NCBI GenBank assembly: GCA_001724025.1 | Contig: MEDJ01000023.1 | Span: forward strand, 62,001 to 126,000 | Length of the DNA: 64,000 bases | Direction: 5' to 3' | Source of the DNA: Acidobacteria bacterium SCN 69-37 | GTDB lineage: Bacteria > Acidobacteriota > Vicinamibacteria > Vicinamibacterales > SCN-69-37 | Part shown: positions 4,721-41,121 of the stretch, piece after piece | Layout of the letters: each line of letters opens with the position of its first letter | Position numbering within the stretch: position 1 is the first letter of the stretch | The notes under the pieces: model-generated | Seen by the model: the letters and a program-made list of their open reading frames with translations, nothing else | What the model was told of the DNA's origin: nothing | Database searches by the model: none | Translations under genes and position numbers: made by a program

Positions 4721-4797
4721 GCGCCCTTAGCTCAGCTGGATAGAGCGTCTGGCTACGAACCAGGAGGTCGCACGTTCGAATCGTGCAGGGCGCACCA
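4721..4797 (+). tRNA. tRNA-Arg (ACG)
   Basis: A full cloverleaf can be drawn by eye. The acceptor stem is GCGCCCT / AGGGCGC, the D stem GCTC / GAGC, the anticodon stem TCTGG / CCAGG with loop CTACGAA, and the T stem GCACG / CGTGC with loop TTCGAAT. The anticodon ACG is at 4755-4757 and reads CGU (CGN after deamination to inosine). The discriminator base is A (4794), and CCA is encoded at 4795-4797. Confidence 0.96.
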
Positions 4798-23744: not shown

Positions 23745-25124
23745 ATGCAACGCATCACGCTCAGAAGTGCCACGTTCGTCGTCCTCGAGGGGCTCCTGAT
23801 CGTCGGGGCCGCCATCGTGGCGCTGTACGTGCGGATGGGCGAGGATGCCGGGCCCCTGATGGCCGACGGCGGCGTGTGGAAGCTGGTGCTGATTGCCGCG
23901 GTCACGCAGGCGTGCCTCTACTACGCCGACCTCTACAACCAGCGGCTCGTGACCGATCGCCGCGAGTTCTTCATTCGCGTACTGCAGGCCGTCGGCGGTG
24001 CGGCCGTCGTGCTGGCCGGGCTGTACTTCTGGTTCCCGTCACTCATCATCGGCCGTGGCGTGTTCCTCGTGGCGGCCGTGCTGATCGTGCTGATCGTGCC
24101 GGGATGGCGGATCGCCTTTCAGTGGCTGAGCGGATACGTGGGGCCGCGCGAGCGGTTACTGCTGGTCGGCGCGAGTCCGGCGGCCATCGTCCTGGCGCGG
24201 GAACTCGACGAACGCCGCCACGATCTTGGCGTCGAGATCGTCGGGTTCGTCGATGTCGGCGGCGACACGGCGGCGATTGCCGAAGCCGGCCAGGCCGTCC
24301 TCGGGACGATCGAGGATATTCCGTCGATCGTCAGGGCCCGCGGCGTCGATCGCGTCGTCGTCAGCCTGGCCGATGCCCGCGGCAAGCTGCCGATGGAAAA
24401 GCTGCTCGAGATGAAGCTCGACGGCGTCACCTTCGATCACCTGCCATCGGTCTACGAGGAGTACACCGGGAAGATCGCCGTCGAGAACCTGCGGCCGAGC
24501 TGGCTGATCTTCTCCGCCGGGTTCCGGCGCAGCCGGACGATTGCCGCACTGAAGCGGACGATGGACGTCTGGATCGCCGCGAGCGGCCTCGTCATCGGCG
24601 CTCCGCTGCTGCTGCTGGTGGCCGTGCTCGTGCGCCTGACGTCGCCGGGGCCGATCCTCTATCACCAGCGCCGGGTCGGATTGCGCGGCCATATCTTCTT
24701 CGTGCACAAGTTCCGGAGCATGCGACAGGACGCCGAGGCAACCACCGGGGCGGTGTGGGCCTCGCCGACAGGAGACAGCCGCGTGACGCCGATCGGGCGG
24801 TTCATGCGCAAGACGCGCATCGACGAACTGCCGCAGTTGTGGAACATCCTCAAGGGCGAGATGAGCTTCGTCGGTCCCCGCCCGGAACGGCCGGAGTTCG
24901 TCACCGACCTGACGCGCGTCATCCCGTACTACGGCCAGCGCCACATCGTCCGGCCCGGACTGACCGGCTGGGCGCAGGTGTGTTACACCTACGGGGCCAG
25001 CACCGAGGACGCGCTGCAGAAGTTGCAGTACGACCTCTACTACATCAAGAACCTGTCGGTCTGGCTCGACTTCTACATCATGTTCGAGACCATCAAGACC
25101 GTCGTGCTCAGGAAGGGAGCGTGA
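23745..25124 (+). CDS. Polyprenyl-phosphate sugar-1-phosphate transferase (EPS priming enzyme)
   Basis: 459 residues. The N-terminal half has about four membrane helices (LEGLLIVGAAIVALYVRM, GGAAVVLAGLYFW, VFLVAAVLIVLIV) and a Rossmann-like CoA-binding-type domain (LLLVGASPAAIVLARELDE). The C-terminal half is the bacterial sugar transferase catalytic domain, with KRTMDVWIAASG, a membrane-dipping helix, KFRSMRQDAE, RKTRIDELPQLWNIL, SFVGPRPERPEF and VRPGLTGWAQV. It transfers a sugar-1-phosphate to undecaprenyl phosphate, starting each repeat unit. The architecture matches the sugar transferases of exosortase-type loci (EpsB/WbaP-like). The sugar cannot be read from sequence. Confidence 0.92.
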   Translation: MQRITLRSATFVVLEGLLIVGAAIVALYVRMGEDAGPLMADGGVWKLVLIAAVTQACLYYADLYNQRLVTDRREFFIRVLQAVGGAAVVLAGLYFWFPSLIIGRGVFLVAAVLIVLIVPGWRIAFQWLSGYVGPRERLLLVGASPAAIVLARELDERRHDLGVEIVGFVDVGGDTAAIAEAGQAVLGTIEDIPSIVRARGVDRVVVSLADARGKLPMEKLLEMKLDGVTFDHLPSVYEEYTGKIAVENLRPSWLIFSAGFRRSRTIAALKRTMDVWIAASGLVIGAPLLLLVAVLVRLTSPGPILYHQRRVGLRGHIFFVHKFRSMRQDAEATTGAVWASPTGDSRVTPIGRFMRKTRIDELPQLWNILKGEMSFVGPRPERPEFVTDLTRVIPYYGQRHIVRPGLTGWAQVCYTYGASTEDALQKLQYDLYYIKNLSVWLDFYIMFETIKTVVLRKGA

Positions 25125-25125
25125 G

Positions 25126-26046
25126 GTGATTGCCGCCGACCATGACCGTGCGTCAGACGAGCCCATCGTCAACGCGATGAGCATCGACGTGGAGGACTAC
25201 TTTCACGTCAGCGTCTTCGACGGGCTGGTGCCCCGTTCGCAGTGGGACTCGATGGAGAGCCGGGTGAAGGCCAACACCCTCCGGCTGCTCGAGATCTTCG
25301 ACGAGTTCAAGGTGCGATCGACGTTCTTCGTCCTGGGCTGGGTCGGGCGGCGGCATCCGGATCTCGTGTCGACGATTGCGCGTGCGGGGCACGAGGTGGC
25401 CTCGCACGGCTACGCGCACCGGCTCATCTACGACCAGACGCCGGCCGCCTTCCGCGAGGACGTCCGCCGAGCGAAAGGCCTCCTGGAGGAGGCGGCGGGG
25501 CGTGTGGTCTGCGGCTACAGGGCCCCCAGCTATTCGATCACGCCGCGATCGCTGTGGGCGCTCGATATCCTGGCCGAGGAAGGCTACACGTACGACTCGA
25601 GCATCTTCCCGATCAGACACGATCGCTACGGCATTCCCGTCTCGGGCCGGCGACCCTACCGGATCGTCCGCGGCACGCGTTCACTCATCGAGGTGCCCGG
25701 ATCGACGACGAAGGTCGGGCCGGTGAACCTGCCGGTGGCCGGCGGCGGATACTTCCGCCTGCTGCCGTACTGGTGGACGCGCTGGGGGATCTCGCGCGTC
25801 AACAGGCTGGAGCATCGGCCGGCGGTGTTCTACCTGCACCCGTGGGAAATCGATCCCGGACAACCGCGGCTGCCGGCCGGCCGGCTCGGCCGCTTCCGCC
25901 ACTATCGCAACATCGAGCACACGGAAGCGCGGCTGCGGCAACTGCTGACCGACTTCCGGTTCGATGCCGTCGACACCATCGTCTCGCGTGCCTGCGAGGC
26001 CGGCTACGGTGCGGCGACGACCCCGGCGCTGCCGTACTCCTGGTGA
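25126..26046 (+). CDS. Polysaccharide deacetylase, EPS-locus type
   Basis: 306 residues from GTG 25126. A NodB-type deacetylase domain begins with MSIDVEDYFHVSVFD; the Asp pair and the HGYAHRLIYDQTP segment provide the expected metal ligands. GYRAPSYSITPRSLWALDIL is the next conserved motif, and a C-terminal extension follows (FYLHPWEIDPGQPRLP). This extended form is the one found in exosortase-associated loci. It probably removes N- or O-acetyl groups from the growing polymer. No signal peptide is seen, so a cytoplasmic or carrier-linked substrate is likely. The next start overlaps its stop. Confidence 0.9.
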   Translation: MIAADHDRASDEPIVNAMSIDVEDYFHVSVFDGLVPRSQWDSMESRVKANTLRLLEIFDEFKVRSTFFVLGWVGRRHPDLVSTIARAGHEVASHGYAHRLIYDQTPAAFREDVRRAKGLLEEAAGRVVCGYRAPSYSITPRSLWALDILAEEGYTYDSSIFPIRHDRYGIPVSGRRPYRIVRGTRSLIEVPGSTTKVGPVNLPVAGGGYFRLLPYWWTRWGISRVNRLEHRPAVFYLHPWEIDPGQPRLPAGRLGRFRHYRNIEHTEARLRQLLTDFRFDAVDTIVSRACEAGYGAATTPALPYSW

Positions 26047-27764: not shown

Positions 27765-28896
27765 GGGCGAGTTCCGCATAGATGGCCTCGAGACGACGGG
27801 TCCGGGCCTCGAACGAGAGCACCGTTTCGATGCGCTGCCTGGCGGCGGCCGCCATCTCGCGTGCGCGATCGGGGTGCGACAGCGCGTCGATCATGGCAGC
27901 GGCCAGCGCCGCGGCGTCGTGTCTCGGCACCAGCAGCCCCTCTCGACCATCTGTGAAGAGTTCGGCCGTGCCGCCGGCGTCGGTCGCCACGAGCGGTGTG
28001 CCCAGCGCCATGGCTTCGAGGACCGCGTTCGGCGTGCCCTCGTACTCGGATGCCTGGACGAACAGATCGAACGCACTGTGCAGATCGACGATGTCCGTGC
28101 GATGACCGGTGAAGATGACGCGGTCTGTCAGGTCGAGCGCCCGGGCCTGCTCGCGCAACGCCGGCAGCAGGCTGCCGTCACCGACAATGGCGAGGCGGAG
28201 ACGCGGGACGGACGAGGCGACACGCGCCGTGGCCTCGAGCAGCAGGTCGAAGCGCTTCTGGCGCTCGACGCGACCGACGGCGCCCACGAGGATCTCGTCC
28301 GGAGCGACGCCGAGCGCGGCACGAACGCCGGCCGCGCGATCGGGCTGCCGGCGGAATGCCGCCGGATCGATGCCATTCAGGATGACTGTCACCCGATCGG
28401 ATTTTGCGCCGGCGGCGAGCAGCGTGGTGCGGATCTCGCTCGAGACGGCAATCACGCGCGGGAATCGTGCGAGCAGCCAGCGATCGACGGGATAGTAGAG
28501 CCGGCGTTCCCGCGGGCTCTGGCCCGTCCACCCGTGCGCGGTCGCCAGCGGGATCACACCGGTTCGTCGCCGGAGGTAGAGCGCGATCGCGTCCGTTTTG
28601 TAGTCGTGCGCGTGCACGATGTCGAAGCCGCCGTCCCTGACGATGGCCGCGAGCGGCGCGAGGACGGCGAGATCGAGCGAATGCCGCTCGCGCACTTCGA
28701 CGTAGTCGACGCCGAGCGCGCGGGCGCGCGTGTCGAGATCGAACTGCTGATCGCGCGCGTCCCTGATGTAGCAGACCCGTACGTCGTACCGGTCGCGATC
28801 GGTCTGTGCGGCACCGAGCAGGATCGTCTTTTCCGGACCGCCGCCCGGACCGGTCACGCTGCGGAGTTCGAGGACGCGGATGCGTCGGCGTGTCAC
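27757..28896 (-). CDS. Glycosyltransferase, GT4-like (GT-B)
   Basis: 379 residues. The N-terminal nucleotide-fold domain carries the GGPEKTILLGA loop. The C-terminal donor-binding domain carries VGAVGRVERQKRFDLLLEA, LAIVGDGSLLPAL, VIFTGHRTDI and the ExxE-type FVQASEYEGTPNAVLEAMALGTPLVATDAGG. A retaining GT4 enzyme is expected; donor and acceptor cannot be assigned. It overlaps both neighbours by a few bases on the same strand. Confidence 0.9.
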   Translation of the reverse strand: MTRRRIRVLELRSVTGPGGGPEKTILLGAAQTDRDRYDVRVCYIRDARDQQFDLDTRARALGVDYVEVRERHSLDLAVLAPLAAIVRDGGFDIVHAHDYKTDAIALYLRRRTGVIPLATAHGWTGQSPRERRLYYPVDRWLLARFPRVIAVSSEIRTTLLAAGAKSDRVTVILNGIDPAAFRRQPDRAAGVRAALGVAPDEILVGAVGRVERQKRFDLLLEATARVASSVPRLRLAIVGDGSLLPALREQARALDLTDRVIFTGHRTDIVDLHSAFDLFVQASEYEGTPNAVLEAMALGTPLVATDAGGTAELFTDGREGLLVPRHDAAALAAAMIDALSHPDRAREMAAAARQRIETVLSFEARTRRLEAIYAELAHA

Positions 28897-30089
28897 GGTC
28901 GTCGTCCTTCGGCCGCCCGACGCAGGATGTCGGCCAGCGGTCCCAGCTGGCGCGACCAGGTGAGTCCGGTGACGTCCGCGCGGCCGGCGAATGCGCGTCG
29001 TGCGTCCGGCGACAGCGCCAGCAGGTCGACCATGGCCGCGGCCAGCGTCTCCGGCGTCTCGGCCGCCACGCAGGCCGGGCGCAGCGCGTCGGGCAGGCTC
29101 GCCATGATGTTCGGTGTGACGACGGTCGGCAGGCCGGCGGCGACGGCTTCGAGCACCTTGTTCTGGATGCCACGCGCCGTGACGATGGGCGCCGCGGCCA
29201 CGGCCGCAGACCAGAGATACGGCCGGACGTCGGGTACGGCGCCCGTCACTTCGATCCCGAGGGCCGGATCCGCCAGCGCCTGCACCCGCGGCGTGGGTGC
29301 GGCCCCGACGATCGCGAGCGTCGCATCAGGTCTGACGCGCCGTACGTGCGGCCAGATCTCGCGCGCGAGCCAGGACGCGGCTTCCTCGTTCGGCGCATAG
29401 TTCATCACGCCGCAGATGACGACGCGGGCATCGGCCGCCGGCGGATTCGGTGGGGCGAGGGCGTCGACGTCTACGCCGTTGGGCACCACGGTGATCGGTG
29501 CGCCTGGAGCGAGGGCCGCCAGTTCCGCGCGTTCCCGCTCCGTGACGACGAGCGTTTCGCGTGCGGCACGCGTGGCCATCGACTCGAACGCGGCCAGCCG
29601 CGAGGCTTCGCGCTTGTAGATCCACGACATCGGTGGTGATGCCACCCGTGACAGGGCACGCCACTTCGCGGAATCGACGTCGACCATGTCGAGGACGAAC
29701 GGCAGGCCCGCCAGCGGTGGCTCCAGGGCCAGCCGCGCCATGCCCGAGCAGTAGGCCAGCACGACGTCGGGCGGGCGCCGGGCCACGGCCGTGGCGAGCG
29801 CCGTCCGCAGGCCGGGGCCATCGAGCATCACGTGTGTGAGCGGGCGGGGCGTGGGCAGGGCGGTGACCGCGCGCAGGCGATTCCGCCACGTTGGTACGCG
29901 CACCAGCTCGCAGGAGGCCGCCAGCCCGTCCAGATCCGGTCCGCGTGCTGCTTCGTCCTCGTCGTGCACCAGCGAGACGACGTCGACGACGGCCTGTCCG
30001 GCCAGCGTGCGGAGCATATGGAACGCGCGCACCCGATCCCCGCGGTTGGGGGCGTAGGGGAGCCGGTGCGTGAGGAAGAGGACGTTCAA
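28893..30089 (-). CDS. Glycosyltransferase of the exosortase/EPS-associated group
   Basis: 398 residues. The N-terminal MNVLFLTHRLPYAPNRGDRVRAFH, with PLTHVML and SAKWRALSR further on, is characteristic of the sugar transferase subfamily that accompanies exosortase-type EPS operons. The C-terminal half has VPNGVDVDALAP, VVICGVMNYAPNEEAASWLAREIWP and PIVTARGIQNKVLEAVAAGLPTV. It is the first gene of the minus-strand trio, divergent from the 30242 gene across 152 bases that contain a possible -10 (TACTAT near 30144). The substrate is unknown. Confidence 0.88.
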   Translation of the reverse strand: MNVLFLTHRLPYAPNRGDRVRAFHMLRTLAGQAVVDVVSLVHDEDEAARGPDLDGLAASCELVRVPTWRNRLRAVTALPTPRPLTHVMLDGPGLRTALATAVARRPPDVVLAYCSGMARLALEPPLAGLPFVLDMVDVDSAKWRALSRVASPPMSWIYKREASRLAAFESMATRAARETLVVTERERAELAALAPGAPITVVPNGVDVDALAPPNPPAADARVVICGVMNYAPNEEAASWLAREIWPHVRRVRPDATLAIVGAAPTPRVQALADPALGIEVTGAVPDVRPYLWSAAVAAAPIVTARGIQNKVLEAVAAGLPTVVTPNIMASLPDALRPACVAAETPETLAAAMVDLLALSPDARRAFAGRADVTGLTWSRQLGPLADILRRAAEGRRP

Positions 30090-30241: not shown

Positions 30242-31468
30242 ATGACGACCCACGACATGCCGCCCGCGTCGATCCTCGCCGTCACGAGTGAAGTGCCCTG
30301 GCCGTTGACGAGCGGCGGCCGGTTGCGGACCTATCATCTGCTGCGACAACTGGCGCAGGTCCATCGCGTGACGCTCGTCGTGCCGATCGCCGGCGCCGCG
30401 GCGACCGCCGGTGACGCCCTGCGTGCCGCGGGCATCGACCTGCGTGTCGTCGCGTGCGGCATGGGCGGTCCCGTGCGCCAGGGCACGGCGGCGTTGTCGG
30501 CGCTGCTCAGGTCCGAGCCGTACGTGATGTACCGACGCCATCGCCATCAGGCAGTGGCCCGGGCGCTGCCGCGTGTGGCCAGCGACGTGGCGGCCGACGT
30601 GTTGTATTTCGATCATCTCGATGGCTTTGCGTATCCCGACGTCCCGGGTACGGCCGTGGTCGGTGATCTGCACAACGTGTATTCGATGCTGCTGGCCCGG
30701 ACCGCCGCCGAAGAACGCCGGCCGATCTGGCGGCCGTATCTCGCGCGCGAGGCGCGCCTGCTCGCGCGTGCGGAAGCCGCCGCGGCAAATCGCGCGCGGT
30801 TGCTGTTCAGCGTCTCGGCACAGGAGCAGCGGCACTTTGCCGCGCTGGGATCGGCCCGCGTCGAGATCGTCCCGAACGGCGTCGACTGCGCGGCGTATGC
30901 CAACCTGCCGGTCGGGCGTCGGGGCGCGCCGGTGGTGATGTTCCTCGGCGCCCTGTCGTGGGCGCCCAACGCGACGGCAGCCGAGTTCCTGGCACACGAC
31001 GTCCTGCCGCAACTGCGCACGCACGTCCCCGGCGTCGTGCTCCGTATCGTCGGTCGGGATCCGGGGCCGAGAATCCTGCGACTGGCCGACGATCCAGCCA
31101 TCGATATCGCGGGGTCGGTCCCCGACGTGATGCCGTACCTGCGGGAGTCGACGGTGCTTGCCGTTCCGCTCGGCGCCGGGGGTGGCACGCGGCTGAAGAT
31201 CCTCGAAGCGTTCGCCGCGGGCATCCCTGTCGTCAGCACGCCCATCGGGTGCGAAGGGATTGACGCGGTCGACGGCGAGCACCTGGTCGTGGCCGAATTG
31301 CCGGAGTTCACCGAGGCGATTGCGCGTGTCCTGCGCGAGCCCGAACGCGCGGCCCGCATGGCGGCCGCCGCGCGACGACTCGTGGAACAGCACTACGACT
31401 GGACCGCGATCGGTCGCCGCGCGGCCCGGGCGATTGCCGAAATCGTCCCTGCACCGCGCGTCAGCTGA
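30242..31468 (+). CDS. Glycosyltransferase, GT4-like
   Basis: 408 residues. The opening SEVPWPLTSGGRLRTYHLLRQL and the C-terminal NGVDCAAYANLP, VVMFLGALSWAPNATAAEFL, RIVGRDPGPRI and AVPLGAGGGTRLKILEAFAAG give a GT-B enzyme of the same broad subfamily as its divergent neighbour at 28893, whose order of motifs it shares. It probably adds one sugar to the repeat unit. Its 3' end overlaps the convergent lyase-like gene by 8 bases. Confidence 0.9.
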   Translation: MTTHDMPPASILAVTSEVPWPLTSGGRLRTYHLLRQLAQVHRVTLVVPIAGAAATAGDALRAAGIDLRVVACGMGGPVRQGTAALSALLRSEPYVMYRRHRHQAVARALPRVASDVAADVLYFDHLDGFAYPDVPGTAVVGDLHNVYSMLLARTAAEERRPIWRPYLAREARLLARAEAAAANRARLLFSVSAQEQRHFAALGSARVEIVPNGVDCAAYANLPVGRRGAPVVMFLGALSWAPNATAAEFLAHDVLPQLRTHVPGVVLRIVGRDPGPRILRLADDPAIDIAGSVPDVMPYLRESTVLAVPLGAGGGTRLKILEAFAAGIPVVSTPIGCEGIDAVDGEHLVVAELPEFTEAIARVLREPERAARMAAAARRLVEQHYDWTAIGRRAARAIAEIVPAPRVS

Positions 31469-34046
31469 GCAGCCACCAGATCACGACTGCGAGCACGACG
31501 AGGACACCCGTCGCGGCGAGCATCGCCAGCCGCCGGACGGCGTGCGTTCGCTGCGGCACGAACGCGGACCGTCGGGCCGTCGCCGGTGGCGGCGCCAGCG
31601 TCACGGGCGGCGGCAGCGCCTGCAGGCGCCCGACGAGCCAGCCGCATCGAATCCCCTGTGTCAGGACCAGCACGATCGGCCGCGTGAACGTGTAGCCGTC
31701 CATCTGCGGCAGCGCCGTCGTGGCGTGATCGAAGAAGAACGTGGCCCGTTCCGCGAAACGATCGCGATCGGCGCCGTCCGTGTGCCGTGCGGCCCACTGG
31801 AACACATCGGCCTTGCGGAGATCCTGCGCGGTCCACGTCTGCGTCGGGAACTCCAGCCGATCGGGACGTTCCAGGTACGGACGCTCGTGATCCGTCATGA
31901 AACGTGCGAACGTCAGGAGCACCGACCGCGCCCATCCCGCCATCGCGTCGCACTCGCCCAGGCTGATCTTGTGATCGAGGTACACGCCGAGTGCCTGCAG
32001 GAACGCGGTGTAGGACCAGTACCCTTCGATGTCGTCGACGTACGCCGATGAGACCGGATCGCCCGGCGCCGCGGTCCGCCGGATGAGCGCCTCCGCCTTG
32101 TCGAGGAACCGCCGCTCGCCGGACAAACGGTGCGCGACGATGCACGCGAGGATCGAATGGCCGACGCCGCGGCCGGGCCCGTGGTGGCCCGCCGTGTAGT
32201 CGGCCAGGCCCGTCGGCTGCCGACTGAGCCGGCGCAGCGGCGTCAGCCCGCCATCGTCCATGTCGATGACCCATTGTCCGAGGGCGATGGCCGTCTCGCG
32301 CGACAGCGGGTCGCCAGTGAGGAAGTAGTGCAGCATCAGGCCGAGGTTGTAGTTGTGCTCGGCCGATGGCCCGCCGCCGGCCGACCCGACGCGGGGATAC
32401 GTGCGGTGCGTCGACGTGCCGGCGTCGACGTAGTGGTTCGTGTGCCAGAACAGACCGTGGTTGTACGCGGCCTTGTCGTCGCTCGTGTGATAGACGTCGA
32501 TGTCGTACACGTGCCTGGCGAGGTCGTCCATCAGGCGCCACCAACGCTGATCGCCCGTCAACAGGAACTGGCACGCGAAGCCGGCCACGGCGTCGTACTG
32601 ATTGTTGTAGTGCGAGACGAACGGCCGATCCGGGGGCTGGAAAGCCGACTCGTGATCGGCGGGCAGATCGCCGAAATGCCGCCACCCGTATTCGTCGGCC
32701 CGTTCACGCTTGGCGACGAACCCGCGATCGGGATCGAGCGAGAGATCGGCCAGCGACGTGTAGGCGGGATCCGGCTCGCCGAGCGGCTGGTCCAGGCCGG
32801 GGATGGCGGCGGCCCGTGCCACCTGGTCGATCGGGATCCGGAATCGCTGCGGGACGAGGCACCAGGCGAGCGGTTGGGGAGAGACCGGGTCGTCGCCGCA
32901 GGCCACCACGAACGTGTGTGTCTTCTGTTCGCCGCCCTGGAGTTCGTGGACGTCGCCCGCGTCGTCGGGGAACAGGCCGATCGTCACGGCTGCCTCGTCG
33001 AGCGCCAGCGCGCGCGGGAAATTCTGCCAGAAGTCCGGGACGGCGACGTGCAATGGGCCGGCGGCGGCCTGGACGCTGAGCACCGGCGTGGCGCGATCGC
33101 CGGTCCACGTGCCCTCCGCCGTGTGGCAGCGGTAGCCGCGGAACGGCAGGCGGATCCGGGCGTCCCTGGTGACGTGTGTGCGGGACTGCCACTGATCGCC
33201 GCCGCTCGACGCCTGAAGCAGCGTGACGGGCGGCGTGACGGCGGCGGCCGGCGTCGAGGGATCGATCGCGAGGCCCGCCGAGGTGATGCCCCCGGCCGGG
33301 CGGATGCGCACACGCGCCGCGTCCAGGAAGATCGACCCGGGATCGCCGAGGGGCCACTGGCCTCCCGGGTGCTCGGCGCGTCGGCGATTGCGGATCGTCA
33401 GGTGGACGCGCGCGGCCGGCGTGCTGCTGAAAATCTCGACACGCGCGAACACGACCAGCGACGTCGACCCGAGGCCGGCCGGCGGCGTGGCCGTGACGTG
33501 GATCTCGGCCCTGACCGGTCCGCGGGCGACTACGGTGATGGCATCCACGGTCCAGGCGCCGGTCTGGCCCCCTGTGGCGATCTCCAGGCCCGCCCCGTCG
33601 GCGGCGACGACGTCGCCGGCTGCCGTGGTCATGGATGAGATCGGAAACGACCCACCGCGCTCGATCCGGAACGTCGTCGGTCCCGTCGTGAGTTGTACGT
33701 GATTGAGGCCGTGATCGAGGATCAGGCCGTCGTCAGCAGGTGCGGTGGTGTCGTCGGCGGCGAGGGCGAGATCGTAGGCCGTCCCCGCGCGACCGCTGCG
33801 CGTGGCCGCGAAGTCCAGCAGCGCCCACCGGATGGTGCCGTCCGGCCATCGTTCCAGTTCGCGGAACTGGGTGGCGGCGGGTGCGGCGTCATCGCGGGCG
33901 AGCCGGAGTGTCGAAAGATCCCGGACCATGCCGGCCGGGAACGGGACACCGGTGGTGACGGGCTCCCGGAAGCGGGGGCCCGTTTCGTCCGGACTGTCGA
34001 CAACGGTGAGGCGAAGAACAGGGAAAGGACAGGGAGGCCACGACAT
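31461..34046 (-). CDS. RIFT-barrel (YetA/exo-rhamnogalacturonan lyase-like) protein with C-terminal membrane anchor
   Basis: 861 residues. The N-terminal region (PVTTGVPFPAGMVRDL, FRELERWPDGTIRWALLDF) matches the RIFT barrel that opens YetA/PcRGLX-type proteins, whose characterised members act on rhamnogalacturonan. The centre has beta-rich lyase-like segments (GYRCHTAEGTWTGD, FWQNFPRAL). From about 470 an alpha/alpha-toroid-like part follows, with FVSHYNNQYDAVAGF, HTNHYVDAGTSTHRTYP and TAGHHGPGRGVGHS. The last 22 residues are a membrane helix (LAMLAATGVLVVLAVVIWWLLS) preceded by Arg residues. There is no N-terminal signal, so the topology (tail-anchored, bulk inside or exported) is open. A role in trimming or degrading the EPS is inferred. 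Confidence 0.75.
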   Translation of the reverse strand: MSWPPCPFPVLRLTVVDSPDETGPRFREPVTTGVPFPAGMVRDLSTLRLARDDAAPAATQFRELERWPDGTIRWALLDFAATRSGRAGTAYDLALAADDTTAPADDGLILDHGLNHVQLTTGPTTFRIERGGSFPISSMTTAAGDVVAADGAGLEIATGGQTGAWTVDAITVVARGPVRAEIHVTATPPAGLGSTSLVVFARVEIFSSTPAARVHLTIRNRRRAEHPGGQWPLGDPGSIFLDAARVRIRPAGGITSAGLAIDPSTPAAAVTPPVTLLQASSGGDQWQSRTHVTRDARIRLPFRGYRCHTAEGTWTGDRATPVLSVQAAAGPLHVAVPDFWQNFPRALALDEAAVTIGLFPDDAGDVHELQGGEQKTHTFVVACGDDPVSPQPLAWCLVPQRFRIPIDQVARAAAIPGLDQPLGEPDPAYTSLADLSLDPDRGFVAKRERADEYGWRHFGDLPADHESAFQPPDRPFVSHYNNQYDAVAGFACQFLLTGDQRWWRLMDDLARHVYDIDVYHTSDDKAAYNHGLFWHTNHYVDAGTSTHRTYPRVGSAGGGPSAEHNYNLGLMLHYFLTGDPLSRETAIALGQWVIDMDDGGLTPLRRLSRQPTGLADYTAGHHGPGRGVGHSILACIVAHRLSGERRFLDKAEALIRRTAAPGDPVSSAYVDDIEGYWSYTAFLQALGVYLDHKISLGECDAMAGWARSVLLTFARFMTDHERPYLERPDRLEFPTQTWTAQDLRKADVFQWAARHTDGADRDRFAERATFFFDHATTALPQMDGYTFTRPIVLVLTQGIRCGWLVGRLQALPPPVTLAPPPATARRSAFVPQRTHAVRRLAMLAATGVLVVLAVVIWWLLS

Positions 34047-34117: not shown

Positions 34118-36505
34118 TCAGGCGCCCGGATAGCCTGGCGGCAGCCAGCCCCCATTCCGACAGGTCCATCCCGATCCGGGTGCCGGCGTCGTGCAGCTGC
34201 CTGGCGTCGATGGCACCGGCGTCACGGCGGGGGGGACGACGGGCGCCGGAACCACGCCGGGCGGCAGCCATCCGCCGCCAGCGCAGACCCAGTCCGCGCC
34301 GGGGCGCGGGCTGGTGCAGACAGACACGACAGGCGGTGTCGAGGGCGTCTGGGGCACCGTCGGCACGACGGGCGGCGTGATCGGGGCCGATGTCGTCGGT
34401 GGCGTCATGCCCGGCGGCAGCCAGCCGCCGTTGTAGCAGGTGCCGCCTCCCATCGATGCGAAGGGATCGGGCGTCGAGCAGCCGGCCGAGGACGCGGGGG
34501 GCGCGGGCGGCGACGTCACGGGCGGTGGCATGACCGGGGCCGATGTGGCCGGTGGTGTCATGCCCGGCGGCAGCCAGCCACCGTTGTAGCAGGTCCCGCC
34601 ACCCATGGCCGCGAACGGATCGGGCGTCGGACAGCCGCTCGACGATGTTGGCGGCGTTGGTGGCGGGGCTGGCGGCGGTGGCGCGGTCGTGACGTTGCCG
34701 ACCGTCACCACCCGCACGGCAGACATCGTCACGTTGCCGGCTGCGTCCCGCGCGGCCGCGCGCAGGGCGTGGCTGCCGTTGACGGCATTCGTCGTGTTCC
34801 AGCTGACGGCGTAGGGGGCCGTCGTATCCGGCGATCCGAGGTTCACGCCGTTCAGTGTGAACTGCACGGACACTACGCCCACGTTGTCCGACGCGGCTGC
34901 CGAGACCGTCACCACGCCTCGGATCGTGGCGCCGGCGGCTGGCGCCGTCAGGCTCACTGTCGGCGCCGTCGTGTCGGCCACGACGTTGCGGACCGTCACC
35001 GTGACGGGGGCGGAGGTGGCCGTGTTACCGGCTGTATCGCGGGCCACGGCGCGGATCTGGCGCGTGCCATTGGCCGCGGACGTCGTGTTCCACGTCTGCT
35101 GATAGGGAGCCGTCGTGTCTTCGGCGCCGATCGTCACGCCGTCGACCGTGAACCACACGCTGCTGACACCCACGTTGTCCGAGGCGGCAGCTGTCAGCGC
35201 GATCGTCCCCGAGACCGTCGTCCCTGTCGCCGGCGTCGTCACGGATACGACAGGCGCGGTCGTGTCGACGGCGCTCGCACTGCCCGCGTATTCGTCGGCG
35301 CCGACATCGACGCTGCCGCCGATCGGGCGCGCCTGACCGTCCCAGTCGACGGGGACGTCAGTCGTGAGCGTGCCGCGATCGATGGCCGGCGTCGCGCTGG
35401 CCGTCAGGTGGAGATCGCCGCCGTTCGCGTTCGCGAACCAGCTCGATGCGGCCGTCCAGACGTTGCCCGACGCCGACGAAACGGCTCCATCGCGGTTCTG
35501 CAGGCCCTTGTCGGCGAGGTTGTTGATGACGGTGACGCCGGTCGTGTGCGGAAAGCGCGTCTCGATGGCGTTCGGATACTGGCCGTTCGTCCAGATCGTG
35601 TTGTGCGCGACGATGGTCGACGGGCTGTCGTAGACCGCGATCGGGACATCGCCGCCGCTGCCGGGACTGCGCACGATCATGTTGTTGCGGATGATGCCGC
35701 CCGTGTGATCGTTCGGCGTGCGCTCGACGAGGCCGAGGCTGATGTCGCGGTGGTTGTCGACGAAGGTGTTGCCCTCGACAATCGTGCCGCTCGATCCGTT
35801 CCACATCAGCACGGCCGGTCCGCCGAGCTGACCCTGCGGACCGCGGATGCGGCGGAAGAGGTTGTGCCGGATCACCCAGTTGCGGCCCGTGTGGATATCG
35901 AGGCCGTTCGTGTAATAGCTCGGTGCCGTGGTCGTGTACTCGAAGACGCAGTATTCGACGACGCCGTTGTCGACGCCGCCGCCGGTACCGTCCGGATTCG
36001 CCTTCACCAGCTGCTGGCCGCCGTCGACCAGGCGGACGTTGTAGAGGCGCGGGGACTGCGTCCCGGGATTCAGCATGACCGGGTGCTGATAGATATCTCT
36101 GATCGTCAGGTTGGCGATCGTGAGGTTGGTGACGCCGTTCCCGGCCCAGATGCCGAACGGCACTGCAGAGCTGGCGACGCCCATGCCCTGACCGACGAGG
36201 ACAACGTCGTTGCGGTTGTTGGTCGCACCGCGGAGCGTGACATTCGTCTTGTTGCCGTTGACCCAGAGCGTGCTGGTCAGGGCGTACGTGCCCGGCGCGA
36301 TGACGATGGTCTGATTCGAGGCGACGGCGTTGACGGCCGCCTGGAGGGCTGCGACGGTCGAGACCTGGATGACCGTCCCGCCCGGCGCCGGCAGAGCCGG
36401 CACCGAGTCAGGCGAGAGGGCGAGCGTGGGGCGTGGCGACCAGAAGCCGGGGAGGGTGGCGGCGACCAGCGTCAGCGTGGTAAGGCCGATGAACCGCCGG
36501 ATCAT
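34118..36505 (-). CDS. Secreted beta-helix protein with Ig-like and NGGWLPP repeats
   Basis: 795 residues from ATG 36505, which overlaps the stop of the 36505-38988 gene; the upstream open frame is not needed. A signal peptide (MIRRFIGLTTLTLVAATLP) is followed by a pectate-lyase-like right-handed beta-helix at about 45-400 (IVIAPGTYALTSTLWV, NLTIANLTIRDIYQHP, VEGNTFVDNHRDI) ending in PIGGSVDVGADEY. Two bacterial Ig-like repeats come next (about 413-510 and 511-607; ASDNVGVSSVWFTVDG, ASDNVGVVSVQFTLNG), then Pro/Thr linkers with four copies of C-x2-P...C-x-x-GGWLPP at about 625, 676, 730 and 771. The protein ends GGWLPPGYPGA. It is probably an extracellular glycan-binding or glycan-modifying protein; a catalytic function is not proven. 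Confidence 0.8.
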   Translation of the reverse strand: MIRRFIGLTTLTLVAATLPGFWSPRPTLALSPDSVPALPAPGGTVIQVSTVAALQAAVNAVASNQTIVIAPGTYALTSTLWVNGNKTNVTLRGATNNRNDVVLVGQGMGVASSAVPFGIWAGNGVTNLTIANLTIRDIYQHPVMLNPGTQSPRLYNVRLVDGGQQLVKANPDGTGGGVDNGVVEYCVFEYTTTAPSYYTNGLDIHTGRNWVIRHNLFRRIRGPQGQLGGPAVLMWNGSSGTIVEGNTFVDNHRDISLGLVERTPNDHTGGIIRNNMIVRSPGSGGDVPIAVYDSPSTIVAHNTIWTNGQYPNAIETRFPHTTGVTVINNLADKGLQNRDGAVSSASGNVWTAASSWFANANGGDLHLTASATPAIDRGTLTTDVPVDWDGQARPIGGSVDVGADEYAGSASAVDTTAPVVSVTTPATGTTVSGTIALTAAASDNVGVSSVWFTVDGVTIGAEDTTAPYQQTWNTTSAANGTRQIRAVARDTAGNTATSAPVTVTVRNVVADTTAPTVSLTAPAAGATIRGVVTVSAAASDNVGVVSVQFTLNGVNLGSPDTTAPYAVSWNTTNAVNGSHALRAAARDAAGNVTMSAVRVVTVGNVTTAPPPPAPPPTPPTSSSGCPTPDPFAAMGGGTCYNGGWLPPGMTPPATSAPVMPPPVTSPPAPPASSAGCSTPDPFASMGGGTCYNGGWLPPGMTPPTTSAPITPPVVPTVPQTPSTPPVVSVCTSPRPGADWVCAGGGWLPPGVVPAPVVPPAVTPVPSTPGSCTTPAPGSGWTCRNGGWLPPGYPGA
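34121..34633 (-). repeat. Four C-x2-P...C-x-x-GGWLPP repeats (protein level)
   Basis: The first two copies are near-identical (CxTPDPFAxMGGGTCYNGGW). The third is CTSPRPGADWVCAGGGW and the fourth CTTPAPGSGWTCRNGGW. Each has two Cys 12-15 residues apart and is followed by LPPG and a Pro/Thr/Ser linker. The DNA words, such as GGCAGCCAGCCGCCGTTGTA, recur at about 34417, 34568, 36535, 36672 and 36814. Confidence 0.85.
34685..35269 (-). repeat. Two tandem bacterial Ig-like domains in the beta-helix protein
   Basis: Two domains of about 97 residues, each running from DTTAPxVS through ASDNVGV and NTTxAxNGxxxxRAxARDxAGN. The first carries WFTVDG and the second VQFTLNG. They match, copy by copy, the Ig-like domains of the upstream gene. 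Confidence 0.85.
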
Positions 36506-38988
36506 CACAGCCCCGGGAAGTCGGGCGGCAGCCAGCCGCCGTTGATGCAGACCCAGCCCGTACCTGGCAGTGGTGTCACGCACGCGCCGGGGGTGGTCTG
36601 GAGCGTCGGTGTCTGCGGGACAACGACCGACGGAACGACGTTCGAGATCGCCGGCGGGGCCATGTTGGGCGGTAGCCAGCCGCCGTTGTAGCAGTTCCAC
36701 CCGGCCCCGGGCTGCGGCGTGGTACAGGCGGCCGGCGTCGACGGGATGGTCGGTGTCGACGGCGTGGTGATCGTCGGCGGCACAATCGTTGTCGGTGGGA
36801 CCATGCCTGGCGGCAGCCAGCCGCCGTTGTAGCAGGTGCCGCCGCCCATGGCCGTGAACGGGTCGGGCGTCGCGCAGGAGGTGTTGAGCGTCGGCGTCGG
36901 TGTCGGTGTCGTCGGTGTCGAGACGACGGGCGAGGACACCGCTGGCGGCGCGCTGACGACGTTGGAGACGATGACCGTGCGAGCGGCCGACGTGGTGACG
37001 TTGCCGGCCGCGTCACGCGCGACCGCGCGCAGCACGTGCGTGCCATTGGCCGCACCCGCGGTGTTCCAGCTGAGGCTGTAGGGCGCGGTGGTGTCGGCCG
37101 ATCCGAGGCTCACGCCGTTGAGCGTGAACTGCACGGAGGCGACGGCGACGTTGTCGGTCGCGGTGGCGGACACGGTGACCGTGCCCCGGACCGTCGCGCC
37201 GGACGCGGGTGCCGTCAGGCTCACCGTCGGTGCCGTGCGGTCGCTGCTGGTGCTGGCGTTGTTGACCGTCACGGTGCGGGCGGCCGACGTGGTGACGTTG
37301 CCGGCCGCGTCACGCGCAACCGCGCGCAGCACGTGGCTGCCGTTGGCCGCACCTGACGTGTTCCAGTTGAGGCTGTAGGGCGCCGTGGTGTCGGCCGATC
37401 CGAGATTCACGCCGTTGAGCGTGAACTGTACGGAGGCGACGCCGACGTTGTCGGACGCCGACGCGGACACGGTGACCCTGCCGCTGACGGTGGCGCCTGC
37501 GGCCGGGGCCGTCAGGCTGACGCTCGGCGCCGTTGTATCCGATGCGGCGTTGTTGACGGTGACGGTCACCGCCGGCGACGTGGACGTGTTGCCTGCCGCG
37601 TCGCGGGCCACGGCGCGAATCGCGTGCGAGCCGTTGGCGGCCGTCGTCGTGTTCCACGAGGCCTGATAGGGCGCGGTCGTGTCCTCCGCACCGACGGCCG
37701 ACCCGTCGACGGTGAACCACACGCTCGTCACGCCGACGTTGTCCGACGCGTTGGCCGCCAGCGCCACCGTGCCGCTGACCGTCCCGCCCGTCGGTGCGGT
37801 CATGTTCACGGCGGGCGCCGTGGTATCGCCGGTGCCGCTGCTGCCGCCGATCGCGAGCACGTGCACGCGCAGCTTCACGCCGTCGCCGCCCTGCTCGGTG
37901 ACGAAGATGCGGCCGGTGGCCGGATCCACGGCCACGCCGCCGATACCTGCGCCCTTGATCTGCGAGGGCAGGCGCCAGGTGGCGTATGGTTTCACGTCCC
38001 ACGGCTTGCGGCTGCCGGCCTTCACGGCCGCCAGGTCGTTCGCGTTGTAGGCCCAGACGTGCGGTTCGTAGGGATACGCGTGCGTGCCCTTGCCGCCATC
38101 TTCGGGGTCGTTGCACGCGGCCGCTTCGCCGTAGCAGTACTTGCCCATCCCGTGCCGGCCGAAGAACAGCACCGTGGCCGTGTTTTCGGGCAGCAGCACG
38201 CCGCGCATAATGGTCGTGCCGTTGAACAGCGGGCCGGTCGACTCCCATCCGGCCAGCGGCGTCGTGCCTTCTGGATACCCGACCAGCATCGTGGCCGACG
38301 ACGGATTCTTCGCGGCTACGAGTTCCGACGGGCTGACGACCGAGGCGGACGGACCGAACGACGTGCGCGTGATGATGCTGAGGCAGCACTGGCCGTTGAG
38401 CAGCGTGCCGCCGAGGGCCGCCTGCCAGGCCGCGGGAATCGGTGCGAAGTAACCGGCCATCAGGCCCGGGTTCGTCGTCCCGACGCGGAAGGGGCCCTGC
38501 ACGCCGCCCGACGACAGGTTCGTCGACCGCACGAAGTGCGACGACGAGGCCGATCCGTTGCCGTCGTAATAGCTGTAGGCCGTCAGTACGAGTCGATCGC
38601 CGATGACGGTCATGCCGCCGATCTTCTTGCTGTTCGGGTCTGACGGATTGATCTGGTTGATCCGCCCTTCGAGTGGATCGCGGAAGCCCTGGATGACCGT
38701 GGCCCGCTGTCCGAGCGCCGGAATCGTGACTTCGGCCACCTGTTGACCGTAGTCATGGCCGACGATGAACAGCGACTGGTTGGCGGGATTGAACGCGATG
38801 ACGCCCTGCGCGTATTCGAAGCCGTTGCGGCCCGCGGTGTCCTGGACATCCGGCAGCGTGAAACTGCCGAGATACGAAAGGTCGCCTTGTTGCACCAGCT
38901 TGGTGGGCAGTGCAGATTGGGATCTCAGGGGCATGATCCCGGCCACAGCGAGCAGGGTGAACGAGACGAACCAGACGAGTCGACGCAT
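36505..38988 (-). CDS. Secreted propeller-like protein with three Ig-like and three NGGWLPP repeats
   Basis: 827 residues with a signal peptide (FVSFTLLAVAGIMPLRSQS). Residues about 25-380 are a propeller-like domain homologous to the 14123-15463 protein (VIAFNPANQSLFIVGHD, QCCLSIITRTS, FFGRHGMGKYCYG, GGVAVDPATGRIFVTEQGGD). Three Ig-like domains follow at about 389-483, 484-582 and 583-680. Three Cys-containing NGGWLPP repeats are at 705-729, 755-776 and 803-827, the last ending the protein as GGWLPPDFPGL. It is translationally coupled to the beta-helix gene, which shares the repeats. ATG 38988 has GAGGAG 5 bases upstream. It is probably extracellular and tied to the EPS matrix; the function is unknown. 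Confidence 0.8.
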   Translation of the reverse strand: MRRLVWFVSFTLLAVAGIMPLRSQSALPTKLVQQGDLSYLGSFTLPDVQDTAGRNGFEYAQGVIAFNPANQSLFIVGHDYGQQVAEVTIPALGQRATVIQGFRDPLEGRINQINPSDPNSKKIGGMTVIGDRLVLTAYSYYDGNGSASSSHFVRSTNLSSGGVQGPFRVGTTNPGLMAGYFAPIPAAWQAALGGTLLNGQCCLSIITRTSFGPSASVVSPSELVAAKNPSSATMLVGYPEGTTPLAGWESTGPLFNGTTIMRGVLLPENTATVLFFGRHGMGKYCYGEAAACNDPEDGGKGTHAYPYEPHVWAYNANDLAAVKAGSRKPWDVKPYATWRLPSQIKGAGIGGVAVDPATGRIFVTEQGGDGVKLRVHVLAIGGSSGTGDTTAPAVNMTAPTGGTVSGTVALAANASDNVGVTSVWFTVDGSAVGAEDTTAPYQASWNTTTAANGSHAIRAVARDAAGNTSTSPAVTVTVNNAASDTTAPSVSLTAPAAGATVSGRVTVSASASDNVGVASVQFTLNGVNLGSADTTAPYSLNWNTSGAANGSHVLRAVARDAAGNVTTSAARTVTVNNASTSSDRTAPTVSLTAPASGATVRGTVTVSATATDNVAVASVQFTLNGVSLGSADTTAPYSLSWNTAGAANGTHVLRAVARDAAGNVTTSAARTVIVSNVVSAPPAVSSPVVSTPTTPTPTPTLNTSCATPDPFTAMGGGTCYNGGWLPPGMVPPTTIVPPTITTPSTPTIPSTPAACTTPQPGAGWNCYNGGWLPPNMAPPAISNVVPSVVVPQTPTLQTTPGACVTPLPGTGWVCINGGWLPPDFPGL
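36508..36876 (-). repeat. Three C...C-x-NGGWLPP repeats (protein level)
   Basis: The copies are CATPDPFTAMGGGTCYNGGW, CTTPQPGAGWNCYNGGW and CVTPLPGTGWVCINGGW, each followed by LPP and separated by Thr/Pro/Val-rich linkers of about 25 residues. They are the same family as the repeats at 34121-34633. Confidence 0.85.
36949..37824 (-). repeat. Three tandem Ig-like domains; two copies are near-identical 297-bp DNA repeats
   Basis: The second and third domains are 99 codons apart and almost identical at DNA level; for example CGTGGTGACGTTGCCGGCCG occurs at 36991 and again 297 bases later at 37288. The first domain is more diverged and resembles the first Ig domain of the downstream gene. Confidence 0.85.
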
Positions 38989-39759: not shown

Positions 39760-41121
39760 ATGCTTCGCAGTCTTCTCGTCTTTGGCGCCATCATCGTCGG
39801 GCTTCGGTATTCACTGAAGGACCCGTTCTACGCCCTGCTGTTCTACCTGTGGTTTGCCTACTTCCGCCCGCAGGAATGGCTGTGGTCGGATTTCCTCTCG
39901 TCGCTCGCGCCCTCGATGCTCGTCGGCATTCTGGCGCTTGTCGGCACCGTGCTGCGCGGTCGATTCTCGGTCAGCGGCGCCGGCTGGTTCCTGCTGCTGT
40001 TCCTGCTGCACGGATTCGTGTCGGTCCTCGCCTCGACCGTCCCCGGCTCGGCGTGGCCCTACTGGGTCGACTTCGCGAAGGTCTGTGTCATGGGCCTGCT
40101 CATGCTGTCGCTCATCACCACCGAGTGGCACCTGCGCACGACGATGCTGACGATTGCGGCGTCGCTGGGATTCGAGGGAGCGAAGCAGGGGCTCGTGGAG
40201 TTCGTGCGGCACCCGGGCGCGTCGAACATGAACCCCTGGCCGATGCTGGGCGACAACAACGGCGTGGCCGTCGGCATGCTGATGCTGACGGCGATCACGA
40301 TTGCCCTGTCGCGCACGGCCACGAACGTGTGGGAGCGACGCACAGCCGGCGTCATGGCGTTCGGTGTGCTCTACCGTGGCCTGAGCACCTATTCGCGCGG
40401 CGGGTTCCTGGCCAGCGCGGTGCTCCTGATGCACTTCCTGATGCGGGCCCGACGGCGCGTGGTGGCCATGCTGGCCGCGGCCGTGGCGGCCGTGATCATC
40501 GTGAACGTGCTGCCGGATGCGTTCTGGGAGCGCATGGACACGATCCCGTCCGTCGGGGCGACACGCGAGACGGACGATCAGTCGATTCTCGGACGCCTCC
40601 ATTTCTGGAGCGTGGCCGCCGACATGGCCGCCGACAGGCCGCTCACGGGCGTCGGGCTCAACGCGTACAACTTCGTGTACGACAACTACGACACGTCGCA
40701 CGGGGCGTTCGGCCGCGGGCGGTCGGTGCACAGCTCCTGGTTCGGGATCCTCGCGGAACTCGGCTACCCCGGGATTCTGCTGTTCATCGGGCTGTGTGTC
40801 GGGGCGCTCCTGACGACCCTCGGCGTCCGTCGTCGCGCGCGGCGCGATCCGCGCCTGACGACACTGGCGGACCTGGCGGCCGGACTCGAGGGGGCGCTGC
40901 TCGTGTTCCTGGTCGGCGGCGCCTTCGTGCCGATGCAGTACAACGAGATGGCCTGGCACGTGATCGTGCTGTGTTTCGTGACCGGCCGCGTGGCCGCCCG
41001 CATTTCGGCACGGCCGCCTGCCGATCCGCCGGTCCCGGTGCCGGCCGCGGCAGCCCCGGCCCGTGCGGTACCGCCGCGCGTCGCGGCGCGTGTGCCCCTC
41101 GCTCGACGGAGTGGACGATGA
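39760..41121 (+). CDS. O-antigen ligase/polymerase-like membrane protein (Wzy/WaaL type, exosortase-associated)
   Basis: 453 residues with about ten membrane helices. The N-terminus (LVFGAIIVGLRYSLKDPFYALLFYLWFAYFRPQEW) and NPWPMLGDNNGVAVGMLMLTA are typical of the putative O-glycosylation ligase that travels with exosortase A. The large periplasmic loop near 270-320 holds the Wzy_C region (DDQSILGRLHFWSVAADMAADRPLTGVGLNAY and HSSWFGILAELGYPG). It would polymerise or ligate repeat units at the periplasmic face. The C-terminal 45 residues are Pro/Ala-rich and cytoplasmic. The next gene overlaps its stop. Confidence 0.85.
   Translation: MLRSLLVFGAIIVGLRYSLKDPFYALLFYLWFAYFRPQEWLWSDFLSSLAPSMLVGILALVGTVLRGRFSVSGAGWFLLLFLLHGFVSVLASTVPGSAWPYWVDFAKVCVMGLLMLSLITTEWHLRTTMLTIAASLGFEGAKQGLVEFVRHPGASNMNPWPMLGDNNGVAVGMLMLTAITIALSRTATNVWERRTAGVMAFGVLYRGLSTYSRGGFLASAVLLMHFLMRARRRVVAMLAAAVAAVIIVNVLPDAFWERMDTIPSVGATRETDDQSILGRLHFWSVAADMAADRPLTGVGLNAYNFVYDNYDTSHGAFGRGRSVHSSWFGILAELGYPGILLFIGLCVGALLTTLGVRRRARRDPRLTTLADLAAGLEGALLVFLVGGAFVPMQYNEMAWHVIVLCFVTGRVAARISARPPADPPVPVPAAAAPARAVPPRVAARVPLARRSGR

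What the first reader, a model, noticed from the sequence alone, without database searches (positions are those of the whole stretch)
34118..38988. Cys-containing NGGWLPP tandem repeat shared by two secreted EPS-locus proteins
Seven copies of a 20-25-residue unit (C-x2-P, then C-x-x-GGWLPP) end two translationally coupled secreted proteins whose N-terminal domains are unrelated (propeller versus beta-helix). The last copy sits at the very C-terminus in both (GGWLPPGYPGA and GGWLPPDFPGL). I do not recognise this as a named domain. The position and the shared linkers suggest a matrix-attachment or glycan-binding module, possibly taking the place of PEP-CTERM sorting, since no exosortase is seen here.
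Basis: partly seen in the sequence, partly recalled or inferred. Interest (0 to 1): 0.8.

Follow-up and report, generated by a model that had tools for sequence, protein, structure and literature searches.

The report
Disulfide mini-repeat tail on secreted proteins
Some Acidobacteria carry a small, apparently unnamed cysteine-and-tryptophan repeat, mostly in tandem at the end of quite different secreted proteins, several of them encoded in polysaccharide gene clusters, where it may help hold those proteins in the cell's slime layer.

Summary
Seven copies of a 22-25-residue unit (C-x2-P ... C-x-x-GGWLPP) end two adjacent secreted proteins (window 34118-38988, minus strand). They match no Pfam or NCBIfam family and no PDB sequence. 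Profiles find the unit in a third protein of this genome, in 10 of 193 genomes of the class, and in 2 of 396 sampled across the phylum. It is joined to unrelated domains (beta-helix, GH16, sugar dehydrogenase, PLD, unnamed ones), usually 2-8 copies at the C-terminus; one carrier has a single copy behind its signal peptide. Copies differ silently but keep their protein sequence (pN/pS 0.04-0.40), and cysteines mostly change in pairs, so each unit is probably a disulfide-closed hairpin. On one N-domain tree the tail changes state at least three times. 'Replaces PEP-CTERM sorting' is not supported: the locus is itself an XrtA/PEP-CTERM EPS locus with exosortase A 9.6 kb past the window edge, and exosortases occur in 4 of 8 repeat genomes and 18 of 52 others. 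EPS linkage is real but partial. Best reading: an accessory, lineage-restricted matrix-retention module; glycan binding is inferred, and a glycan-acceptor role is a rival.

The parts
36505..38988 (-). Protein B (827 aa): signal-peptide-like start, unnamed N-terminal domain, 3 Big_7, 3-unit tail
34118..36505 (-). Protein A (795 aa): signal-peptide-like start, right-handed beta-helix, choice-of-anchor Q, 2 Big_7, 4-unit tail; its ATG overlaps B's TGA by one base
36802..36876 (-). B unit 1 (long subtype)
36661..36726 (-). B unit 2 (short subtype)
36517..36582 (-). B unit 3 (short subtype, C-terminal)
34559..34633 (-). A unit 1 (long subtype)
34406..34480 (-). A unit 2 (long subtype)
34253..34318 (-). 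A unit 3 (short subtype)
34130..34195 (-). A unit 4 (short subtype, C-terminal)
37024..37815 (-). Three Big_7 Ig-like domains of B, before the tail
34757..35254 (-). Two Big_7 Ig-like domains of A, before the tail
35288..35425 (-). choice-of-anchor Q domain of A (NF041518, 27.1 bits, cut-off 25)
39760..41121 (+). Exosortase-A-associated putative O-glycosylation ligase (TIGR03097, over cut-off), divergent from B
31461..34046 (-). PcRGLX-like (rhamnogalacturonan lyase-like) protein with a hydrophobic C-terminus, downstream of A; an 870-aa frame, not compared with it, holds the same place in G001
   Evidence: (N-terminal domain over cut-off, the other two below)
23745..25124 (+). XrtA-system glycosyltransferase EpsB_2 (TIGR03013)
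25126..26046 (+). XrtA-system polysaccharide deacetylase (TIGR03006)
28893..30089 (-). PEP-CTERM/XrtA-system glycosyltransferase stp1 (TIGR03087)
14123..15463 (-). Homologue of B's N-domain without any tail

Best explanation
An accessory retention module of extracellular proteins. Secreted proteins (N-termini look like Sec signals) carry one to eight mini-units, usually strung at the C-terminus on flexible P/S/T- or G/S-rich linkers. Each unit is closed by a Cys pair (inferred from paired Cys changes) into a small beta-hairpin that presents the conserved G-W-x-P (AlphaFold, moderate confidence). Side by side, the units would give weak multivalent binding to the organism's own surface polysaccharide or matrix, and so keep matrix proteins and EPS-acting enzymes near the cell. 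The binding step, the ligand and the enzymes' action on EPS are inferred. It is not a cleaved C-terminal sorting signal.
For: The unit is joined to unrelated domains. 8 of 8 proteins with a visible start that were tested have a signal-peptide-like N-terminus; a ninth, G096, does by eye. Copies differ more at synonymous than non-synonymous sites in 8 of 8 sets (pN/pS 0.04-0.40). Cys changes mostly come in pairs: 5 of 5 long units with an extra Cys also have one 11 residues on; 2 of 2 units that lost the second Cys have a new one near the C-terminus. AlphaFold gives hairpins at both units of two models, unit blocks mostly pLDDT 76-88, linker blocks 48-55. XrtA/EPS loci in G000, G001 and G005; polysaccharide-type neighbours in G012, read by eye. 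In the same place a beta-helix homologue (G016) carries repeated domains that I read by eye as F5/8-type, and a homologue of B a collagen-like tail. Units of different proteins in one genome resemble each other more than units between genomes (0.71 against 0.54, label shuffles 0 of 5000), as one common partner would predict, though gene conversion would also do it.
Against: No resemblance to a known carbohydrate-binding module. EPS linkage is partial: the GSDH protein of G001 lies near fliD, C9 lies by gmd and a DNA polymerase III gene. G096 has one unit only, behind the signal peptide, which does not suit a need for multivalency. In G000 units of A and B (0.66) are no more alike than those of orthologues in G001 (0.68-0.69). 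Tailless homologues of the same N-domain exist in the same genome, so the module is dispensable. One short G054 unit gains a single Cys. Foldseek found nothing significant.
Confidence: 0.42

Rival explanations
1. Glycan acceptor. The P/S/T-rich linkers are O-glycosylated, by an XrtA-locus O-ligase in G000/G001 or by a protein O-mannosyltransferase (PMT) in genus g2, and the disulfide units space or present the sites; the proteins are thus covalently linked to sugar rather than binding it.
For: Linkers are 56-95% P/S/T in 12 of the 17 tails with linkers (38-55% in the other 5); (TP)n runs in G011, G012 and G013. In G013 a PMT gene follows the repeat gene directly. Of the 7 g2 genomes among the 60 relatives, exactly the 3 with the repeat have PMT_4TMC. 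The putative O-glycosylation ligase gene diverges from B in G000, and a weaker relative of it lies beside the B-like gene in G001.
Against: PMT was not found in G000, G001 or G005, and is present in 8 genomes of another family without the repeat and in G049, where no unit was seen. In G011, G012 and on G013 C25 it sits by an apparent MBOAT gene, not directly by the repeat gene. TIGR03097-like proteins occur in many genomes without the repeat, and the family's ligase function is itself putative. C9 and G094 C99 linkers are mainly G/S. G096 has a unit without a linker array.
Confidence: 0.2
2. Passive stalk or spacer: a stiffened, protease-resistant extension that only displays the N-domain, with no ligand.
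For: P-rich linkers, variable unit number, internal position before BACON in G054, position between signal peptide and a domain in G096.
Against: Units are conserved where linkers vary in length and sequence, and their copies show pN/pS below 1. In 13 of the 18 tails only 2-14 residues follow the last unit, where a spacer has nothing to display.
Confidence: 0.22
3. C-terminal sorting or secretion signal replacing PEP-CTERM.
For: Usual C-terminal position; choice-of-anchor Q domain in A; only 2 PEP-CTERM hits in G000 against 3 repeat-tailed proteins.
Against: No TM or basic end (sequence). Exosortase over cut-off in 4 of 8 repeat genomes and 18 of 52 others. G031 has 32 PEP-CTERM hits plus the repeat. 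Multiple copies, internal placement in G054, a single N-terminal unit in G096, 44 residues after the last unit in C9, and tailless homologues.
Confidence: 0.05

Closest known systems
PEP-CTERM / XrtA (exosortase A) system
   Same: C-terminal module on diverse signal-peptide proteins of diderm EPS producers; the same gene cluster
   Different: No PEP motif, TM helix or basic end; tandem, Cys-containing, can be internal or N-terminal; coexists with PEP-CTERM proteins in the same genome
Choline/glucan-binding repeats (Pfam PF01473)
   Same: Short tandem repeats with G-W-x3-N-G-x-W spacing in many short units; hairpins that attach proteins to surface glycans (structure, function and spacing of that family are recalled)
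   Different: No significant match (1 of 48 units, E 0.072); has a Cys pair and PP; the first W is missing in long units
Choice-of-anchor domains (NCBIfam NF041518, NF038131)
   Same: A carries choice-of-anchor Q; the PEP-CTERM protein by the exosortase carries choice-of-anchor K
   Different: By their name (recalled) those domains precede an anchor; the repeat would be a new kind of tail after them
Accessory carbohydrate-binding domains (CBM/BACON/F5-8C) on secreted enzymes
   Same: Optional modules on enzymes and beta-helix proteins; beside BACON in G054
   Different: 22-25 residues, apparently disulfide-closed, no homology detected

Membership tests
PEP-CTERM (TIGR02595) | PEP motif, TM helix and basic residues at the C-terminus | tested here: not met
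   The only two TIGR02595 hits in G000 at E 0.01 are C23:131618 and C4:26914, not A, B or C9; the C-terminal sequences of A and B show no TM
PEP-CTERM (TIGR02595) | Cognate exosortase in the genome | tested here: met
   XrtA 220.9 bits against cut-off 208 at L106:9612-10544; a second at C4. Does not make the repeat a substrate
Choline_bind_1 / cell-wall-binding repeat (PF01473) | Significant score | tested here: not met
   1 of 48 units, E 0.072; 1 of 7 window units
Any Pfam, NCBIfam or PDB family for the unit | Significant profile or structure match | tested here: not met
Carbohydrate-binding module (functional class) | Binds a glycan | not testable with these tools
   No binding data; Trp in 48 of 48 units, but my pattern for choosing them asked for W or F there
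choice-of-anchor Q protein (NF041518) | Score over curated cut-off | tested here: met
   A, 27.1 against 25 bits
XrtA/PEP-CTERM EPS locus | XrtA-associated EPS genes around exosortase A | tested here: met
   TIGR03013, TIGR03006, TIGR03087, TIGR03097 over cut-off in the window (chain-length protein TIGR03007 and kinase TIGR03018 below theirs); TIGR02917 and TIGR03109 over cut-off in the next 15 kb
PMT substrates (Pro-rich O-mannoproteins) | Mannosylated Thr/Ser; PMT in the genome | tested here: inconclusive
   PMT in the 3 g2 repeat genomes, not found in G000/G001/G005; modification not testable

The most novel reading that the evidence does not exclude
A lineage-specific protein-to-EPS linking device: tandem disulfide mini-domains on P/S/T linkers form a common tail that the cell's O-glycosylation machinery (an XrtA-locus ligase, or PMT in a sister genus) recognises and joins to sugar, fixing unrelated enzymes covalently into the matrix. 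It would be an alternative to transpeptidase anchoring inside exosortase loci.
Probability: 0.12. Interest if true: 0.8.

Novelty: new variant of a known kind. Interest (0 to 1): 0.45.

Why it matters
It defines an apparently unnamed module that can be turned into a family model, and marks a set of secreted proteins in a poorly cultured class of Acidobacteria. It shows that an exosortase locus can encode proteins with a tail that is not PEP-CTERM, so matrix proteins of such loci cannot be listed from PEP-CTERM alone. If the tail binds or is linked to the organism's own EPS, it would be a small ready-made tag for placing enzymes in bacterial matrices.

Tried and rejected
Sigma-54 (-24/-12) promoter shared with PEP-CTERM genes: matches in the window equal chance (3 against 3.2 expected) and none lies upstream of B; 0 in the exosortase stretch; 1 (0.96 expected) in G001's locus. 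RNA element upstream of B: at gathering scores Rfam finds only a tRNA at 4721-4794. PDB relatives of B's N-domain and of the unit: none significant. Foldseek on the two-short-unit model: 2 matches, E 7.4 and 9.9, not meaningful; the long-unit model was not searched. Mobile-element origin: no match to B's tail in plasmids or phages, no exact core pattern in viral contigs. The Micromonospora match is one copy, lacks the first Cys and lies in a 152-aa frame: taken as chance. Weak profile hits in G024, G025 and G049 are not counted as carriers: no unit was seen by my patterns in the fetched G024 and G049 stretches or the G025 locus. Papers: full-text searches for GGWLPP, NGGWLP and NGGWVPP found 0 papers each; choice-of-anchor with PEP-CTERM 0, Vicinamibacter with exosortase 0; three further listings were not read beyond passages of PMC1569441. 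That library misses most subscription journals.

G096 has a single unit behind its signal peptide, so I withdrew 'always two or more copies', lowered the best explanation from 0.45 to 0.42 and the sorting rival from 0.07 to 0.05, and raised the spacer rival from 0.20 to 0.22.

Full report
WHAT IS THERE. Two genes on the minus strand, B (36505-38988) then A (34118-36505), overlap by one base at TGATG. B is 827 aa, A 795 aa. Both begin with a signal-peptide-like stretch. A has a Pfam beta-helix, a choice-of-anchor Q domain and two Big_7 domains; B has an N-domain without a Pfam or NCBIfam name and three Big_7 domains. Both end in a tail of the reported unit: three copies in B, four in A, with ten invariant residues in 7 of 7. 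Eight of A's nine cysteines and six of B's ten lie in units. Five of the six Big_7 matches in the genome are in A and B.

SPREAD. A profile of the seven copies finds a third protein in the same genome (contig C9, 8 units). With a 48-unit profile, 10 of 193 genomes of the class match at E 1e-5, in three families; in a sample of 396 genomes across the phylum only the own genome and its sister do (at most 22 candidates per genome were scored, so this is a lower bound). An exact core pattern in the 84,980 species genomes of the collection gives nine stretches: eight from Acidobacteria MAGs, one of them titled Vicinamibacteraceae, and one apparent chance match in Micromonospora. That pattern needs W-x-C, so it misses long units, and the window's own record may be left out. 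The class is presumably Vicinamibacteria; this rests on that one title. None in viral contigs, plasmids or phages at the settings used.

CARRIERS. Besides A and B: an unnamed secreted protein (C9) with a 33%-identical relative in G013; a GH16 protein, a beta-helix orthologue and a B-like fragment in G001; GSDH proteins in G001 and G054; a PLD protein in G094; beta-helix and B-like proteins in G005; and fragments in G011, G012, G031, G054 and G094. All 8 proteins tested with a visible start have a hydrophobic N-terminus (a hydropathy script and the eye, not SignalP). Of the 18 tails tabulated, 13 end 2-14 residues after the last unit and five have 29-125 residues more. In G054 a BACON domain follows the units. 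Two further carriers were seen only: G012 C153, two variant units (NGTW, NGNW) in a frame whose upstream part looks non-coding, and G096, a 225-aa frame with a single unit directly behind a signal-peptide-like start and a separate domain after it. So C-terminal tandem is the habit, not the rule.

THE UNIT LOOKS LIKE A SELECTED, DISULFIDE-CLOSED ELEMENT. Within eight sets of copies synonymous differences exceed non-synonymous ones (pS 0.28-0.59, pN 0.02-0.23, pN/pS 0.04-0.40). The copies were chosen by a pattern that fixes the Cys, Gly and Trp places, which lowers pN somewhat; the window's seven were found by GGWLPP alone. Even Cys counts (17 of 18 tails) are mostly automatic with two per unit, and some tails are cut at contig ends; the one odd count is a fault of my pattern. 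The informative cases are changes. Five of five long units with an added Cys (G054) also have one 11 residues later, while none of the nine other long units has either. Both G005 units that lost the second Cys have a new one near the C-terminus. Against this, the short fourth unit of G054's GSDH protein gains a single Cys, whose partner could only be a lone Cys in the BACON part. AlphaFold on two-unit stretches gives a two-stranded hairpin around the second Cys and the Trp in both units (unit blocks mostly pLDDT 76-88), with linker blocks 48-55. Mean pLDDT was 72 and pTM about 0.3, so the arrangement of units is not predicted, and disulfide geometry could not be read.

AN OPTIONAL MODULE. B's N-domain has homologues that end without the tail: 67% identical on C20 of the same genome, another in this window (14123-15463), and others in G001, G037 and G046 (one of G037's two has other domains instead). 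On a tree of nine such domains the tail changes state at least three times on well-supported branches. One of the three rows called tailed, G001 C122, shows Big_7 up to its contig end and a matching tail only on another contig, so that row is inferred. Homologues of A end without the unit in G046, G045, and in G028 and G000 C4 (both with an in-frame stop), and in repeated domains that look like F5/8 type in G016 (the naming is by eye). By eye, none of these had a PEP-CTERM end in its place.

THE LOCUS. The cluster is an XrtA/PEP-CTERM EPS locus: EpsB_2, XrtA deacetylase, stp1 and PEP_O_lig_1 are over cut-off in the window; PrsT, a choice-of-anchor K protein with the PEP-CTERM hit, and exosortase A follow within 11 kb of its end. 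In G001 stp1 and EpsB_2 lie on the contig of the repeat genes, and a PEP_O_lig-like gene below cut-off beside the B-like gene. In G005 the B-like gene lies by FemAB, deacetylase and EpsB_2 of the same system, over cut-off, and a tyrosine kinase and ATPase below the XrtA cut-offs. But the G001 GSDH gene lies near fliD, and C9 near gmd and a DNA polymerase III subunit gene, two other neighbours matching nothing. Across the 60 relatives, exosortase over cut-off occurs in 4 of 8 repeat genomes and 18 of 52 others, and G011-G013 have the repeat without exosortase or PEP-CTERM hits. The repeat is therefore neither a substitute for nor dependent on that system. For the PEP-CTERM definition I read passages of PMC1569441.

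MECHANISM. Shown: secretion-type N-termini, conserved repeated units, mostly paired Cys changes, optional attachment to unrelated domains, partial EPS linkage. Inferred: a disulfide hairpin presenting W-x-P, weak binding to the cell's own matrix, retention of EPS-acting enzymes. Units in different proteins of one genome are more alike (mean 0.71, 13 pairs) than units across genomes (0.54, 92 pairs; 0 of 5000 shuffles; 15 of the 18 tails used), but this leans on G001 and G005; in G000, A and B are no closer to each other than to their G001 orthologues. Shared ligand, gene conversion and plain relatedness of paralogous tails all fit.

THE ACCEPTOR LEAD. Linkers are P/S/T-rich in most tails, and in G011-G013 they hold (TP)n runs. 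In G013 a protein O-mannosyltransferase frame starts just after the repeat gene. Of seven g2 genomes among the relatives, the three with PMT are the three with the repeat; they share a genus, so this is not three independent events. PMT was not found in the window's genome, occurs without the repeat in eight genomes of another family, and in G011 and G012 neighbours a different gene. I keep it as the boldest open reading, not the best one.

VERDICT. Ordinary in kind (an accessory module of extracellular proteins), unusual in its unit.

Noticed in passing
G000 C23:135612-136544 (L106:9612-10544), 9.6 kb past the window's right end: Exosortase A with PrsT and one PEP-CTERM protein bearing choice-of-anchor K; a second exosortase/PEP-CTERM pair lies on C4 (L102).
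   Followed up: yes
L109:5790-6464 (-), G096: 225-aa frame with a single unit directly behind a signal-peptide-like start: the only N-terminal case seen.
   Followed up: partly
L051:2080-3429 (+), G013: Protein O-mannosyltransferase gene directly after a repeat-tailed gene with (TP)n linkers; among 7 g2 genomes PMT occurs in exactly the 3 with the repeat.
   Followed up: partly
L098/L099, G000 C14:63180-64272: A homologue of B's N-domain split over two frames with a run of undetermined residues; its C-terminus is collagen-like, another alternative tail.
   Followed up: no
L103, G000 C4:41684-42688: Beta-helix homologue of A with an in-frame TGA, about 15 kb from the second exosortase: possibly a pseudogene.
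   Followed up: no
L054 and L058, G054: Long units with an extra Cys pair (an added Cys and another 11 residues on), 5 of 5 units.
   Followed up: yes
window 38989-39759: 770-bp gap between B and the divergent O-ligase gene; no sigma-54-like site near B and no Rfam match.
   Followed up: partly
window 4721-4794 (+): tRNA gene, the only Rfam match in the window at gathering scores.
   Followed up: no
L022, C9 protein, inner units: Six near-identical units with NGGWVPG between two canonical ones; 5 distinct DNA versions of 6.
   Followed up: partly
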